This document shows positions 489 through 6,552 of a stretch of 6,552 nt of DNA, piece by piece. The stretch is from the NCBI GenBank assembly GCA_023512255.1, contig JAILZY010000139.1, positions 1 through 6,552 on the forward strand, written 5' to 3'. The DNA comes from a bacterium (GTDB lineage: Bacteria > SZUA-182 > DTGQ01). The notes beneath the pieces are model-generated. The model searched no databases. It was not told the origin of the DNA and worked only from the letters and a program-made list of their open reading frames with translations. Both the position numbers and the translations under genes were made by a program. The stretch's first letter is position 1; each line of letters starts with the position of its first letter.

Positions 489-617
489 ATGAACAGGTTA
501 GAAAATTTTATTAGCTTAGTAAAATTGAGAACAGCTTTAATAGTAAGTTATGGAGTAATCTGGACGATAATAGGTTGTTTTTCAGTCTGGGGCATTTCCC
601 CTCGGCAAGCTTTAGCT
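489..617 (+). other. N-terminal export signal: signal peptidase I site or lipobox
   Basis: Residues 1-14 carry K12 and R14, followed by a hydrophobic run (15-30). Two cleavage readings are possible. I27-I28-G29-C30 satisfies the lipoprotein box pattern [LVI][ASTVI][GAS]C, which would make a lipidated protein. ALA at 41-43, after a proline, offers a signal peptidase I site. The second leaves a rather long c-region. The sequence alone does not decide between them. Confidence 0.7.
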
Positions 618-3600
618 ACAGCCATTACTGATACCAACCAGACTGAAAGTTATGCCTCGACTGATGATGGCTCTTCCTCCCCCCTTCCCTCCAGCGAGCT
701 TGATGCACAAGGCAATCTCTTGCCTGATTCTGTTGCCTCCTTTAGCATAATCAAGGCAGATAATGATAGCCTTAGTGATCCTAATCAGCCCCCTCCACCT
801 AATCAGACTTATAATCAGACTCAATCATCCACGCCTACTCAGAATCTCTTTCTGGCCGAAGGGCCGGATGCCGGTATTCCTCAGCCACCTGCGCCTACTC
901 AGGATCGGTCAATCACCTCTAGTCAGACTCAGTCCCCTGCGACTACGGCTAATAAGTCACTTCCTGCCTCTGTTCCCCCTTCCCCTGGAGCGGCTGAAAA
1001 TTCTGATTGCCCTGACCAGAATCCACCTATTTATCCCCCCTATTCTAGCCTCATCGCTAGCCTTATCGGGCAGTCATTCCCTATAGTTAAAGCCGCAGTC
1101 AGCTTTTTTTACCTCTCTGATCTAACCACGCCTTTTTATACCACCCAAGCTGATGAAAGCGGTTATTTTAGCCTAGCTCTTAATTCTTCTCCTCCTGAGG
1201 CTGATAAAGATAAAGATGCTGATCAAGATAAAGCTGATCAAGATAAAAAAGATAAAGATGATGAATATATCCTCATAGCTGTCAGCGGCGGGCAGGTGGT
1301 AGATGCGGATAATAACGGCCTTCTAGACAGCCGGCCAACCCCCAACACCGGCTCTTTTCACGCCTTGGTCAGTCTTTCTCAGCTCACCAGCGGCCGTCTG
1401 CTCAGGGTCTCTGTCCTGACAGATATTGTTTGGCGTTATACCCGACATATACTTAATCAGACAGACAAAAGAGGCCTTGCGATCCGGCTTGAGGAGATAG
1501 CCAAAATTCTTCTCAAGGAAGACAAAGGTGATTTCGATGGCGATGGAGTGGTCAAGGCCGCGGATTTTTTGGCCTTTGATCCTACCAACAGCCATCATTG
1601 GGCTGGGCTTAATTTTGACTACCAGCGTCTTTTTACTGAGGATGAAAATGGGAAGTCAATTATCAACTGCTACTATCAGAATAATGAGCAAGAGCTGTTA
1701 GAGCTTCTGGACAAGGCTTTTGGTGCTCTGCTTACCCTTTATCCAACCCTGGGGGACAAAAATCCAGTGGTCAAGATAGAGGTTGCGCCTTTTGGCCGTG
1801 GTCGGGTGTTTGAGGCGAGCGGCAGGCTTCATTTTGATTCTGAAGGTGATCCCAATCAAAATCTTGTTGCTGCCTTTTTTGACAAAAACCCCGGCCGTAA
1901 GGTAGTGCTGACGGCCGAGCCGATAGCTGAAACCAAGATTTTAGGCTGGGAGGGCTGCGATGCGGTCTCGGCTGATCTAACCCAATGTGAATGTCAGCTG
2001 GATCAAGACCATACAGTCAGGGTGTCTTTTGGCTATAAGGAAACTAAGATAGTGCCCAACTTCATTGATTTAAGCGAGGCTGAGGTAATCAGGGATAACT
2101 ACACCCTGCTGGTAACAATCGATCCTGCCGACAGCGAGCTTCAGCAGAAGATGGCTGCCCTGACAGCCGGCTGGTATGTTGTTGGCTCCACGGGATATGG
2201 TTTTTTACTCAAGGTAGTATCAGTCGACAAAATCAGCGATCTGGTCTATAGGCTTGAAACCAAGGAAGCCACCTTGGATGAAGTTGTCCTTCAAGGCACC
2301 GGCACCTTCAGCTGGAAGATGACCCATAAAGACCTAGCTTTGCCAACCGCCACGCCGGTGAGATTAAAAGCTGGCCCAAACTCTCCTCCAGTTTGGCTTC
2401 TTCCCTCCCAGGACCCTAATGACAAGGTCTTTACCCTGGTCCTCGGTGATCAGCCGCCTGATCCTCAGCGCCAGCGAACCTACTCGCTAACGGCAGGAAC
2501 CGGAGAGGTAGAAGTTAGGTTAGAGGTGGAAGGACCACAGGAGATAGATATAGTGGTAGACGGATCTTTAAGTTTAGAACTTCAACTTGATGTTGGGATG
2601 TCTTTTTCTTTTTTCAAGGGGCTTGAAAGCTTTCGTTTTATTCCTAAAGTAATAGCTAAACAGAATCTGAGTGCTAGTCTCCAAGCAAAATTAGAGCTAT
2701 TTGAAAAGGAGAAGAGGCTAAAATTTAAAAGTAAGAAAATAACACTTGCCAGATTACCATTTAGCTCAATCAAATTTTTTATTGGGCCAGTGCCAGTTTT
2801 TATTACTCCTCAAATAGAAGTCCTTGTTGGGGTTGATGGTACGTTAACGGCTAATATTAAAGCAGAGATAGAATTTGAAGAGTCGGTAGAGGCTGGCATA
2901 TCGTATAATAAAAATCTTAATCCAGCACTGACAAAAATAATGAATGTCCCCCCTGTAGATTTTAAACCATCCTTGCCGCACGTCGAAGGAGGTTTTGAAT
3001 TAAAATTCTATCTTGAACCTGAAGGAGAGCTTCTTATATATGGGGTAGCAGGGCCAGCTATTCCTCTTACTTTTTTTCTTGCCCTTGAGGGTACAGTACC
3101 ACCATCAGGCTGTGTCGAGGTCGATTGTAAGCTCGGCATAGAGAGTGAATTTAAATTATTAGAGTTGAATAGAAAGTTTGGCAAGTATTTGGGAGAAATA
3201 GACATAGAAATCCCGCTCACGATTAGGCTGGAATGGGAGCTGGGCGAATGGGAATTTTGCGACCATGCGCCTGGTGCGCCTCCACCGTCTGAAAAGCTGC
3301 CGCACCTTGAAGTTAGAGGCTCAAATGTGTCCAAGATCATTGAGTATAATTACAAGGGAACGATCAGTCAGACATACCAGCTGATCAATAGAGGTAATAA
3401 GCCGCTGGACTGGTCAATTAGTTATTCCCCGGATGGTATCTTTTCTGTATCACCCCAAAATGGGCGGCTGGAAGGTGGAGAGAGTGTTACGGTAACCGCC
3501 TCGGTGAGGGGCGCTGATCTTGAAATTGGCAAGTATAAAAACACGATAACCTTTAAGAATAGATCTGTCAGCGAATCTTTCAGCCGTTTTTTTGAAATCA

Positions 3601-5408
3601 CTGTCAATCCGCCGCAGATCCCTCTGCCGACCCTGCGCGCTGCCAAAATCTTGGCCACCAAGGTAATCTTGAACTGGATCGTCAACAACACAGAGAATAT
3701 AGATGGCTATTGGCTTTTAAAATCGACCGACCCTAATCCTCAGATAGAGGATAAAGATTGGGATTTGGCTGCAGAAGTTCCTGATAAGAACCAATTTTCC
3801 TACAAAATCAGTAAGCTTTCTCCGGACACCGTCTACTATTTTATGATTATTGCTTATAATAAGCAGGGATTTGAATCTGAGCCGCCGCCAAATCTTTCCT
3901 CGCCCCCAAATTTTCTCAAGACAACAACCAGCTGTTATATTCAGGCTGGCGAAGAGACGATTCAGGAGGCAATAGATACTGTAGCCGAGGGGAAGACGCT
4001 GTTTGTAACGCCTGGGGTTTATTATGAGAATATTGATTTTAAGGGTAAGTCACTTACCCTAAAGAGCACAGATCCGACTAATGCTGAGGTGGTGGCTTCA
4101 ACTATTATTGACGGCGGCCAAAAAGGGAGGGTAGTTACTATTTCTATTGGTAAAGATAAAACCGCTGTCCTATCTGGCTTCACCATTCGAAATGGTAAAG
4201 CCACCGGCAACGGCGGCGGGATTTTGTGCTCTGGCAATATCACCATCAGCCACTGCACCATCAGTGGAAATTCAGCTAGCCACGACGGCGGCGGGATTGA
4301 CTGCGGTGGTGATAGGCCGGCCACCATTACCATCAGCAACTGCACCATCAGCGGAAATTCAGCCCGCTCCGGCGGCGGGATTTGGTGCAATTGTTATAAA
4401 CGTACCACCATCAGCAACTGCACCATCAGCGGAAATTCAGCTTCATGGGGCGGTGGTATCTGTCAATTTTACTATACCAATATTACCAACTGTATTCTCT
4501 GGGCCAATTCAAATGATCAAATTTATAATTATGGCCACCTCTCCATCACCTACTCTAATATCCAAGGTGGATGGGATGGTGAGGGCAACATCAATGCTGA
4601 TCCGCTGTTTGCCGATCCTGAACATGGAGACTATCACCTTAGGCCTGGCTCAGCCTGCATCAATGCCGGCCACCCAAGGATGCACGATTCAGATGGCTCC
4701 CGCATTGATATGGGTGCCTTTGGAGGAGGTGGGGAGAATTATCCACTGATGATAACATATATTGTTGCGGCTGACGGCAGCGGCAATTTTTCTAAGATTC
4801 AAGAGGCTATAGATTCAAGTATATCAGGCGACACAATCATAGTAAAAGCTGGCCTCTATCAGGAGAACCTGGCAATAATAGGAAAGGAAATATCCTTAAT
4901 CAGCCAAGACGGCCCAGAGCAGACCATTATTGACGGCAGTAAGAAAGAAAGAGTTATTTGTTGCATTGGAAGGATAAGATTGAAGGCTTCACTATTCGAA
5001 ATGGTGAAGCCGACGGCGGCGGGATTTGGTGCTCTGGCAATACCACCATCAGCCACTGCATCATCAGTGGAAATTCAGCCACTATTGGCCACTACGGCTG
5101 GGGCGGCGGGATTTGGTGCTCTGGCAATACCACCATCAGCAACTGCACCATCAGTGGAAATTCAGCCCGCGGCGACGGCGGCGGGATTTACTCCGAGTCT
5201 GATAGCCAGACCACCATCAGCCACTGCACTATCAGTGGAAATTCAGGCGTCGGGATTGGGTGTTCTGATACTACCATCAGCAACTGCATCATCAGCGGAA
5301 ATTCAGCTAGCGGCTCCGGCGGCGGGATTCGGTGTTCTGATACTACCATCAGCAACTGCATCATCAGTGGAAATTCAGGCGATTTCGGCGGCATCAGCGG
5401 AGCTTTAG
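489..5408 (+). CDS. Giant exported multidomain surface protein, N-terminal 1494 residues genuine, frameshifted near 4970
   Basis: The gene is probably a cell-surface or secreted adhesin-like protein; no enzyme active site was recognised. Residues 1-43 form an export signal (basic KLR, hydrophobic 15-30). Residues 44-180 are Pro/Ser/Thr/Gln-rich linker. About 185-300 is a transthyretin-like domain with an Asp/Lys insert at 238-259. Residues 348-359 are an EF-hand/dockerin-like loop (D348, D350, D352, D359). About 425-515 resembles InlB B-repeats (VVLTAEP, GWEGC). About 515-935 is a beta-rich module with GPVPVFITP (766-774) and YGVAGP (851-856). About 938-1040 is BACON-like, 1047-1145 fibronectin type III, and 1149-1420 beta-helix cassette 1. 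Cassette 2 starts at 1423. Residues 1495-1639 are out-of-frame translation of beta-helix DNA and are not genuine. ATG 489 is fixed by a TAA just upstream. Confidence 0.85.
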   Translation: MNRLENFISLVKLRTALIVSYGVIWTIIGCFSVWGISPRQALATAITDTNQTESYASTDDGSSSPLPSSELDAQGNLLPDSVASFSIIKADNDSLSDPNQPPPPNQTYNQTQSSTPTQNLFLAEGPDAGIPQPPAPTQDRSITSSQTQSPATTANKSLPASVPPSPGAAENSDCPDQNPPIYPPYSSLIASLIGQSFPIVKAAVSFFYLSDLTTPFYTTQADESGYFSLALNSSPPEADKDKDADQDKADQDKKDKDDEYILIAVSGGQVVDADNNGLLDSRPTPNTGSFHALVSLSQLTSGRLLRVSVLTDIVWRYTRHILNQTDKRGLAIRLEEIAKILLKEDKGDFDGDGVVKAADFLAFDPTNSHHWAGLNFDYQRLFTEDENGKSIINCYYQNNEQELLELLDKAFGALLTLYPTLGDKNPVVKIEVAPFGRGRVFEASGRLHFDSEGDPNQNLVAAFFDKNPGRKVVLTAEPIAETKILGWEGCDAVSADLTQCECQLDQDHTVRVSFGYKETKIVPNFIDLSEAEVIRDNYTLLVTIDPADSELQQKMAALTAGWYVVGSTGYGFLLKVVSVDKISDLVYRLETKEATLDEVVLQGTGTFSWKMTHKDLALPTATPVRLKAGPNSPPVWLLPSQDPNDKVFTLVLGDQPPDPQRQRTYSLTAGTGEVEVRLEVEGPQEIDIVVDGSLSLELQLDVGMSFSFFKGLESFRFIPKVIAKQNLSASLQAKLELFEKEKRLKFKSKKITLARLPFSSIKFFIGPVPVFITPQIEVLVGVDGTLTANIKAEIEFEESVEAGISYNKNLNPALTKIMNVPPVDFKPSLPHVEGGFELKFYLEPEGELLIYGVAGPAIPLTFFLALEGTVPPSGCVEVDCKLGIESEFKLLELNRKFGKYLGEIDIEIPLTIRLEWELGEWEFCDHAPGAPPPSEKLPHLEVRGSNVSKIIEYNYKGTISQTYQLINRGNKPLDWSISYSPDGIFSVSPQNGRLEGGESVTVTASVRGADLEIGKYKNTITFKNRSVSESFSRFFEITVNPPQIPLPTLRAAKILATKVILNWIVNNTENIDGYWLLKSTDPNPQIEDKDWDLAAEVPDKNQFSYKISKLSPDTVYYFMIIAYNKQGFESEPPPNLSSPPNFLKTTTSCYIQAGEETIQEAIDTVAEGKTLFVTPGVYYENIDFKGKSLTLKSTDPTNAEVVASTIIDGGQKGRVVTISIGKDKTAVLSGFTIRNGKATGNGGGILCSGNITISHCTISGNSASHDGGGIDCGGDRPATITISNCTISGNSARSGGGIWCNCYKRTTISNCTISGNSASWGGGICQFYYTNITNCILWANSNDQIYNYGHLSITYSNIQGGWDGEGNINADPLFADPEHGDYHLRPGSACINAGHPRMHDSDGSRIDMGAFGGGGENYPLMITYIVAADGSGNFSKIQEAIDSSISGDTIIVKAGLYQENLAIIGKEISLISQDGPEQTIIDGSKKERVICCIGRIRLKASLFEMVKPTAAGFGALAIPPSATASSVEIQPLLATTAGAAGFGALAIPPSATAPSVEIQPAATAAGFTPSLIARPPSATALSVEIQASGLGVLILPSATASSAEIQLAAPAAGFGVLILPSATASSVEIQAISAASAEL
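1200..1265 (+). repeat. Asp/Lys-rich low-complexity insertion with a 15-bp tandem repeat
   Basis: Residues 238-259 are almost entirely D, K, Q and A. The DNA contains gctgatcaagataaa twice in exact tandem (1218-1232 and 1233-1247), flanked by further gataaa units. It falls between a GYFSLAL strand and a YILIAVSGG strand, so it looks like an expanded loop within the transthyretin-like domain. Slippage expansion is the likely origin. Confidence 0.8.
3933..4740 (+). repeat. Beta-helix cassette 1 (four rungs plus cap)
   Basis: The cassette opens with YIQAGEETIQEAID and PGVYYENI, typical of the first coils of right-handed beta-helices. Rungs follow at 4245, 4332, 4410 and 4482 (position of the ATC/ATT codon in T-I-S/T-N/H-C), spaced 87, 78 and 72 bases. 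Rungs read ISNCTISGNSA with GGGI(L/D/W)C between them. The last is replaced by TNCILWANS, then a cap with NINADPLF and DYHLRPGSACINAG. The ISGNSA/GGGI alternation resembles chlamydial Pmp repeats (FxxN and GGAI) and NCBI 'choice-of-anchor Q' proteins. Confidence 0.85.
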
Positions 5409-5909
5409 TCAGCTGTGGCGGCGGAATTTTCTGTGATGGCAATACCACCATCAGCAACTGCACCATTAGCGGAAATTCAGCCGATTTCGGCGGCGGGATT
5501 TACTGCGGTTATAAGAGCCAAATAACCATCAGCAACTGCACCATCAGCGAAAATTCAGCTAGCGGCTCCGGCGGCGGGATTTACTGCAGCCAGTATAGCC
5601 CTACCACCATCAGCAACTGTATTCTTTGGGCTAACTCAAAAGATCAAATTTATTATATTTATATTGATAATTATTACTTTTATTCCTACCTCTCCATCAC
5701 CTACTCTGATATCCAAGGTGGATGGAGTGGTGAGGGCAACATCAATGCTGATCCACTGTTTGTCGATTCTGAACATGGAGACTATCACCTTCGGCCCGGC
5801 TCGCCCTGTATCAATGCCGGCCGCAGCGGTCAAGACATTCCAACTTATGACCTTGAAGGAAAACTAAGGGACAGCCAACCAGATATAGGAGCCTTTGAAT
5901 TTGGACAAA
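4755..5909 (+). repeat. Beta-helix cassette 2 (eight rungs plus cap), interrupted by the frame break
   Basis: The cassette opens with TYIVAADGSGNFSKIQEAID in the first frame, crosses the break at 4970/4971, and continues in the -1 frame. Rungs sit at 5048, 5135, 5216, 5276, 5348, 5450, 5528 and 5609, spaced 87, 81, 60, 72, 102, 78 and 81 bases, always a multiple of three. The cap (5618-5822) is closely similar at DNA level to that of cassette 1 (4491-4670), apart from a 24-base Tyr-coding AT-rich insertion. The cassette is therefore an internal duplication with an expanded rung number. Confidence 0.85.
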
Positions 5910-6552
5910 GCTTACCTAGCCTGACCAGCCTCTCGATCTCAGGGCCTGATATGGTCAATGAAAATTCAAGCGCCAGCTACACCGCCACCGCTACCTACTC
6001 GGATGGATCAACCAAGGATGTAACTGCACAAGCTGTCTGGAGTGTCTCGCCCTCAACCTATGCCGCTGTAGCCGCAGGCAAGCTGACAACTAAGGAGGTG
6101 CCGTCCAGCCAGACCATCACCATAACGGCCAGCTACACTGATTTGTGCGGTGGGACTAGACAAGCCACCAAGAATATTACCATTGTGGATGTGCCCACCC
6201 TGACCAGCCTCTCGATCTCAGGGCCTGATAGGGTCAATGAGAAATCGACTGTTAATTACACTGCTACCGCCACCTACTCTGACGGGACGAGCAAGGAGGT
6301 AACAAATCAAGCTGTCTGGAGTGTCTCGCCCTCAACCTATGCCGCTTTAGCCGCAGGCAAGCTGACTATCCGCGAGGTGCCGTCCAGCCAGACCATCACC
6401 ATAACGGCTAGCTACAGCGAGGGCGGGGTAAGCAAACAAGCCACCAAGAGTGTTACCATTGTGGATGTGCCGGCTACCCTGACCAGCCTCTCGATCTCAG
6501 GGCCTGATAGGGTCAATGAGAAATCGACTGTTAATTACACTGCTACCGCCAC
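4970..6552 (+). CDS. Continuation of the giant surface protein in the -1 frame (beta-helix rungs, then Ig-like repeats), 3' end off window
   Basis: This frame is open from just after TAA 4940-4942 to the window end, with no stop and no well-placed ATG, so it is the rest of the gene at 489 rather than a separate gene. From 4970 it reads KDKIEGFTIRNGEADGGGI, colinear with KDK..GFTIRNGKA..GGGI in cassette 1. It then gives eight rungs of the TTISNCTISGNSA type, with GGGI(W/Y/F/R)C between most of them. A cap follows (NINADPLF, then GDYHLRPGSPCINAG), and from 5921 tandem Ig-like domains beginning LTSLSISGPD. It adds about 527 residues, giving a composite of at least about 2,020. The family is known for extracellular, carbohydrate- or surface-associated roles; adhesion here is inference. 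The C-terminal anchor or secretion signal is not in the window. Confidence 0.85.
5921..6552 (+). repeat. Tandem 279-bp repeats encoding bacterial Ig-like (Big-type) domains
   Basis: Copies start at the CTG codon of LTSLSISGPD at 5921, 6200 and 6479, giving two complete 279-bp (93-residue) units and a third cut by the window edge. Each reads SLSISGPD, then VNE, YTATATYSDG, AVWSVSPSTYAA, AGKLT, EVPSSQTITITASY and a KxxTIVDVP linker. The 74 bases of copy 3 that are visible match the start of copy 2 without a difference, while copies 1 and 2 differ at many sites. This is the bacterial Ig-like fold common in adhesin stalks; the series probably continues to the right. Confidence 0.85.

What the first reader, a model, noticed from the sequence alone, without database searches (positions are those of the whole stretch)
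4955..5000. Single-base frame break in the middle of a giant beta-helix gene, pinned to one missing A
Before 4970 the frame starting at 489 reads sensible beta-helix sequence; after it, only the -1 frame does (GFTIRNGEADGGGI, then TTISHCIISGNSA). Adding one A at GGA|AGG (4968-4973) gives IGKDK, matching IGKDK at the equivalent place in cassette 1. The 438 bases from there to the stop at 5406-5408 encode 145 spurious residues. No canonical X-XXY-YYZ slippery heptamer is visible at the site, so a mutation or a sequencing/assembly error in a short A-run is more likely than programmed frameshifting. If real, the protein would lose most of cassette 2 and all Ig-like domains, or be switched off and on by the indel.
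Basis: partly seen in the sequence, partly recalled or inferred. Interest (0 to 1): 0.6.

Follow-up and report, generated by a model that had tools for sequence, protein, structure and literature searches.

The report
Recently broken giant beta-helix surface gene
A very long gene for a repeat-rich cell-surface protein is knocked out of frame once, near its middle, in a single draft genome; the break is really in the sequence and looks like an ordinary recent small deletion (or an assembly error), not a programmed switch.

Summary
Confirmed: the ORF starting at 489 reads homologous beta-helix sequence to about 4967. From about 4970 only the -1 frame does, and it stays open to the contig end (6550). 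Profile scans place the break at about 4955-4982. "Pinned to one missing A" is too precise. In the nearest relatives of this cassette, including an unbroken paralogue in the same genome, the segment is 57 nt; here it is 47. A loss of about 10 nt (13 by the broader profile) fits as well as or better than 1 nt, by 2.5-4.5 bits, so the size is undecided.

The 145-residue tail is a by-product of repeat composition: the same off-frame is open for 204 codons in intact cassette 1. There is no slippery heptamer, no exceptional RNA fold and no hypervariable tract beyond AAGA x3. The break is not in an exact repeat or homopolymer. It is the only long-tail frame break in 368 kb of this assembly, although such a scan would catch only about 39% of frameshifts. 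The downstream frame is intact and probably continues on contig C97 (Ig-like repeats, Lcl_C, cohesin, dockerin). So the break is recent or artefactual. I favour a real small deletion (about 0.6) over assembly error (about 0.3). Ordinary biology, low interest.

The parts
489..4967 (+). Part of the giant gene read in frame 0: N-terminal hydrophobic segment, Pro/Gln-rich linker, unassigned region, fn3 domain (1048-1131 aa), beta-helix cassette 1 and the first ~70 aa of cassette 2
3936..4740 (+). Beta-helix cassette 1 (unbroken): NosD-like start, GGGI..TISNCTISGNSA rungs, choice-of-anchor-Q-like end
4135..4746 (+). Off-frame (+1) open run of 204 codons inside intact cassette 1; control showing that the tail at 4968-5405 is a by-product of repeat composition
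4755..5920 (+). Beta-helix cassette 2, read in frame 0 to ~4967 and in frame 2 after it
4941..4952 (+). AAGA x3 tetranucleotide run, 3-40 nt upstream of the likely break zone; too short to be a convincing contingency locus, and a break placed here scores about 5-9 bits below the best placement
4955..4982 (+). Zone holding the frame break (small deletion, net loss = 1 mod 3; size undetermined)
4968..5408 (+). Spurious frame-0 tail and its TAG stop (5406-5408)
4970..6550 (+). Continuation of the gene in frame 2: beta-helix rungs, anchor-Q end, then 93-aa Ig-like repeats running off the contig end

Best explanation
The window holds the 5' and middle part of a giant secreted or surface beta-helix / Ig-like repeat gene in which a recent small deletion (net loss of 1 mod 3, plausibly about 10 nt) around 4955-4982 has knocked cassette 2 and everything after it out of frame. 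In the sequenced lineage, translation would end at 5406-5408 after about 145 junk residues, giving a truncated protein without its C-terminal repeats. Shown: the frame switch, its approximate place, in-frame homologues and an intact downstream frame. Inferred: that the deletion is in the organism rather than the assembly, that it is recent, and that the protein is inactivated.
For: The frame switch is independently recovered by a coding-hexamer model and by homology. The same-genome paralogue on C38 (946 aa), G001:C14 (935 aa) and G002:C241 (1189 aa) carry the same cassette in one open frame. The 57-nt family spacing against 47 nt here fits one ~10-nt deletion; best placements score 110.8 vs 106.3 bits for 10 vs 1 nt with the cassette-2 profile, and 108.1 vs 105.6 for 13 vs 1 nt with the broad profile. 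A ~10-nt loss is not a typical base-calling error. There is no homopolymer of 6 or more at the site, and no 20-mer repeated within the window overlaps it (nearest starts at 5015). No other break with a long tail or without a start codon was seen in 368 kb of the assembly (sensitivity ~0.39).
Against: One draft genome, no reads and no second strain, so a consensus or assembly error is not excluded. The 1-nt alternative is only a few bits worse, and a 16-residue spacing does occur in one paralogue (C84). The intact frame after the break (527 aa, then perhaps 967 aa on C97) shows no sign of decay, which an error would also explain.
Confidence: 0.6

Rival explanations
1. Sequencing, consensus or assembly error in a draft genome; the organism's gene is in one frame.
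For: The downstream frame is perfectly kept for 527 codons to the contig end. The contig is short (6552 b) and ends inside a repeat, so coverage and assembly are stressed here. Same-cassette homologues are unbroken.
Against: The site is not in a homopolymer or an exact repeat. The family spacing suggests more than one base missing. The sampled 368 kb shows no other detectable break.
Confidence: 0.31
2. Reversible on/off switching (phase variation) by a repeat tract near the break, as in chlamydial pmpG genes.
For: Surface beta-helix gene with pmp-like repeats. An AAGA x3 tetranucleotide run lies at 4941-4952. pmpG genes are known to switch through poly-G tracts (PMC6740158).
Against: The run is only 3 units and there is no homopolymer of 6 or more near. 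A break placed in the run scores about 5-9 bits below the best placement. The pmpG hotspots reported are mostly 8-24 nt poly-G/C tracts within 5 nt of the break.
Confidence: 0.04
3. Programmed -1 ribosomal frameshifting or recoding joins the two frames.
For: Both frames are open around the junction and the downstream frame is preserved.
Against: No slippery heptamer or X-XXZ motif in frame. RNA fold of 4961-5080 z = -1.30, 23 of 200 shuffles fold as well. No homologue was seen to use two frames at this place.
Confidence: 0.02
4. Two genes: a second protein starts at TTG 4958 or 4961 behind a weak GAAAGAG purine run.
For: Frame-2 TTG codons at 4958 and 4961, with a purine-rich stretch just upstream.
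Against: The start would lie inside a beta-helix rung, with no signal peptide for an evidently exported repeat protein, and homologues are single ORFs.
Confidence: 0.03

Closest known systems
Right-handed parallel beta-helix / choice-of-anchor-Q proteins (Pfam PF13229 Beta_helix, NCBIfam NF041518, TIGR03804)
   Same: Both sides of the break match: Beta_helix 94.8 bits (cut-off 25.9), para_beta_helix 40.5 (19.45), choice_anch_Q 34.1 (25) after the break; NosD/POMP-like repeats before it
   Different: Interrupted by a frame break; combined with an fn3 domain and long C-terminal Ig-like repeats
Same-genome paralogue on contig C38 (L084:5594-8434)
   Same: Same two-cassette beta-helix arrangement, 48% identical over query residues 1156-1489
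   Different: One uninterrupted frame of 946 aa; cassette-2 spacing 57 nt instead of 47; shorter protein
Phase-variable chlamydial polymorphic membrane proteins (pmpG)
   Same: Repeat-rich surface beta-helix genes that are often frameshifted (PMC6740158); Chlam_PMP repeat matched
   Different: No long poly-G/C tract here; no autotransporter domain found; no evidence of switching

Membership tests
Right-handed parallel beta-helix surface protein | Significant match to beta-helix repeat profiles over their cut-offs | tested here: met
   PF13229 E 5.5e-27, TIGR03804 E 1.6e-10 in the frame-2 part; Chlam_PMP repeat over cut-off in the frame-0 part
Frameshifted gene / pseudogene | Two frames each homologous to consecutive parts of the same protein family, in one frame in relatives | tested here: met
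Frameshifted gene / pseudogene | Break present in independent reads or strains | not testable with these tools
   No reads; no second copy of this gene found in 97 relatives, nor by DNA in 60
Programmed ribosomal frameshift gene | Slippery sequence in frame plus stimulatory structure, conserved in homologues | tested here: not met
   Sequence at 4941-4985 read codon by codon; fold z -1.30; homologues in one frame
Phase-variable contingency gene | Hypervariable simple repeat or homopolymer at the break | tested here: not met
   Only AAGA x3 at 4941-4952, no homopolymer of 6 or more within 1 kb; break best placed downstream of it
Phase-variable contingency gene | Length variation within the population | not testable with these tools
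   no reads

The most novel reading that the evidence does not exclude
The break is one state of a reversible or population-variable switch (indels in a non-homopolymeric site or the AAGA run) that toggles display of the C-terminal Ig-like / dockerin half of a giant beta-helix surface protein in a little-known bacterial lineage.
Probability: 0.05. Interest if true: 0.5.

Novelty: new member of a known kind. Interest (0 to 1): 0.15.

Why it matters
Mostly as a caution. The ORF as a gene caller would report it ends in about 145 meaningless residues that look repetitive and protein-like only because the repeat is free of stops off frame; domain counts, secretion and localisation calls for this gene from the draft are therefore wrong. 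If real, it is one more case of giant repeat surface genes being inactivated in this lineage; a sister genome shows a second broken beta-helix gene.

Tried and rejected
Searches failed on a wrong frame. The Rfam scan of the window found nothing above gathering thresholds. A 17-base pattern from the site in viral contigs gave six exact matches that were not followed up. DNA search of 60 related genomes found no second copy of the locus, and protein search of 97 found no relative of the N-terminal part beyond short partial matches. Plasmid collection: only distant beta-helix proteins at about 28-40% identity. Considered and rejected: programmed frameshifting, separate downstream gene, copy loss in the AAGA run, misassembly through an exact repeat at the site. 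The link C168 to C97 cannot be proven: no exact end overlap, but both ends lie in the same 279-nt repeat, which was found nowhere else in the genome at DNA level.

Full report
Observation. The window is the whole of contig C168 (6552 b) of a 3.83-Mb, 172-contig draft genome. The ORF 489-5408 (1639 aa) reads a giant secreted-type protein; frame 2 has a stop at 4940-4942 and is then open to the contig end. Searching peptides from both sides separately against other beta-helix loci of this and related genomes shows that frame 0 up to 4967 and frame 2 from 4970 match consecutive parts of the same cassette. In the paralogue on C38 they are consecutive in one uninterrupted 946-aa ORF. A hexamer coding model trained on other contigs switches frame at 4944-4967 without being told.

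Where and how big. I scored versions of the cassette with the frame change at every codon and 0-6 unknown residues (X) at the join, against a broad cassette profile (51 sequences) and against the closest cassette-2 relatives. Placements at about 4955-4982 are good; outside this zone the score drops. With the close profile, 4 unknown residues (10 nt lost) score best (110.8 bits, against 106.3 for the best 1-nt version). With the broad profile 5 (13 nt) is best (108.1), and 1 nt (105.6) equals 10 nt (105.5). The reason is spacing: 19 residues (57 nt) separate IIDG from GF[TS][IL] in C38, G001:C14 and both G002:C241 copies, and usually 20 in first cassettes, against 47 nt here. One paralogue (C84) has 16 residues, so a 1-nt loss on a shorter ancestor is possible. 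'One missing A' is therefore one candidate among several and not the favoured one.

The tail. In ordinary genes of this genome a one-base loss leaves a median of 43 nt before a stop, and only 0.15% of simulated losses leave 438 nt or more. Here the long tail follows from composition: the intact cassette 1 has the same off-frame open over 4135-4746, encoding the same kind of SATAPSVEIQ repeats. It is no sign of coding.

Programmed or not. The codons in the break zone (AAG AAA GAA AGA GTT ATT TGT TGC ATT GGA AGG ATA AGA TTG AAG) hold no X-XXY-YYZ or X-XXZ site. The downstream 120 nt fold at z -1.30, with 23 of 200 shuffles folding as well. No homologue was seen to change frame here. There is an AAGA x3 run at 4941-4952 but no homopolymer of six or more near, and placing the break in the run costs about 5-9 bits. 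Frame-2 TTG codons at 4958 and 4961 behind a purine run could start a second protein in principle, but it would begin inside a beta-helix rung without a signal peptide. For comparison, phase-variable chlamydial pmpG genes break mostly within 5 nt of homopolymeric tracts, most of them long poly-G or poly-C (PMC6740158).

Mutation or error. For error: one draft genome, no reads, a short contig ending in a repeat, and an intact frame afterwards. For a real deletion: the site is in no homopolymer; no 20-mer repeated within the window overlaps it (the nearest begins at 5015); the family spacing points to more than a single base; and in 367,645 b of this assembly the window site is the only frame switch whose first frame runs on for more than 100 nt, the 49 other switches having a start codon close by, as at ordinary gene junctions. 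Simulation shows these two criteria would catch about 39% of single frameshifts, so the assembly is not riddled with breaks, but a handful could be missed. I weigh this as about 0.6 real, 0.3 artefact. No reads were available and this is the main uncertainty.

What is lost. The kept part has an fn3 domain, a weak Ig-like match and cassette 1; the lost part has most of cassette 2 and 93-aa Ig-like repeats. The only other DNA copies of that repeat in the genome are on C97, which begins at base 1 inside the repeat, in an open frame of 967 aa that continues with two Lcl_C domains, a cohesin domain and a dockerin type I domain, then stops. C97 is probably the 3' end of the same gene, making it about 3,000 aa or more. 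This link is inferred, since the ends do not overlap.

Known or new. It is an ordinary broken member of a widespread kind of giant repeat surface gene. Nothing found requires a new mechanism.

Noticed in passing
L083 (G000:C97) 1-2904: Probable 3' end of the window's gene: Ig-like repeats, two Lcl_C domains, cohesin and dockerin type I domain at the C-terminus; cohesin and dockerin in one chain is of some interest. The genome has 19 dockerin type I matches.
   Followed up: partly
L114 (G003:C578), minus strand, about 330-345: A second beta-helix gene, in a genome of the same family, is frame-broken between ...SGAPIIT and YSNIKDGYED..., with no start codon near in the new frame: such genes are broken elsewhere in the family, or mis-assembled.
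   Followed up: partly
window 4135-4746 and 4968-5405: The beta-helix repeat DNA (GGCGGCGGGATT...ACCATCAGCAACTGCACCATCAGTGGAAATTCAGC) is free of stops for hundreds of bases in a second frame, giving long spurious ORFs that would mislead gene callers.
   Followed up: yes
window 1200-1260: Short in-frame repeat encoding a D/K-rich linker (ADKDKDADQDKADQDKKDKDD), with several tandem periods; a site where length could vary.
   Followed up: no
G000 genome-wide: Many beta-helix loci in this genome and 6-51 matches in each of 8 genomes of its class: a lineage rich in giant repeat surface proteins.
   Followed up: no
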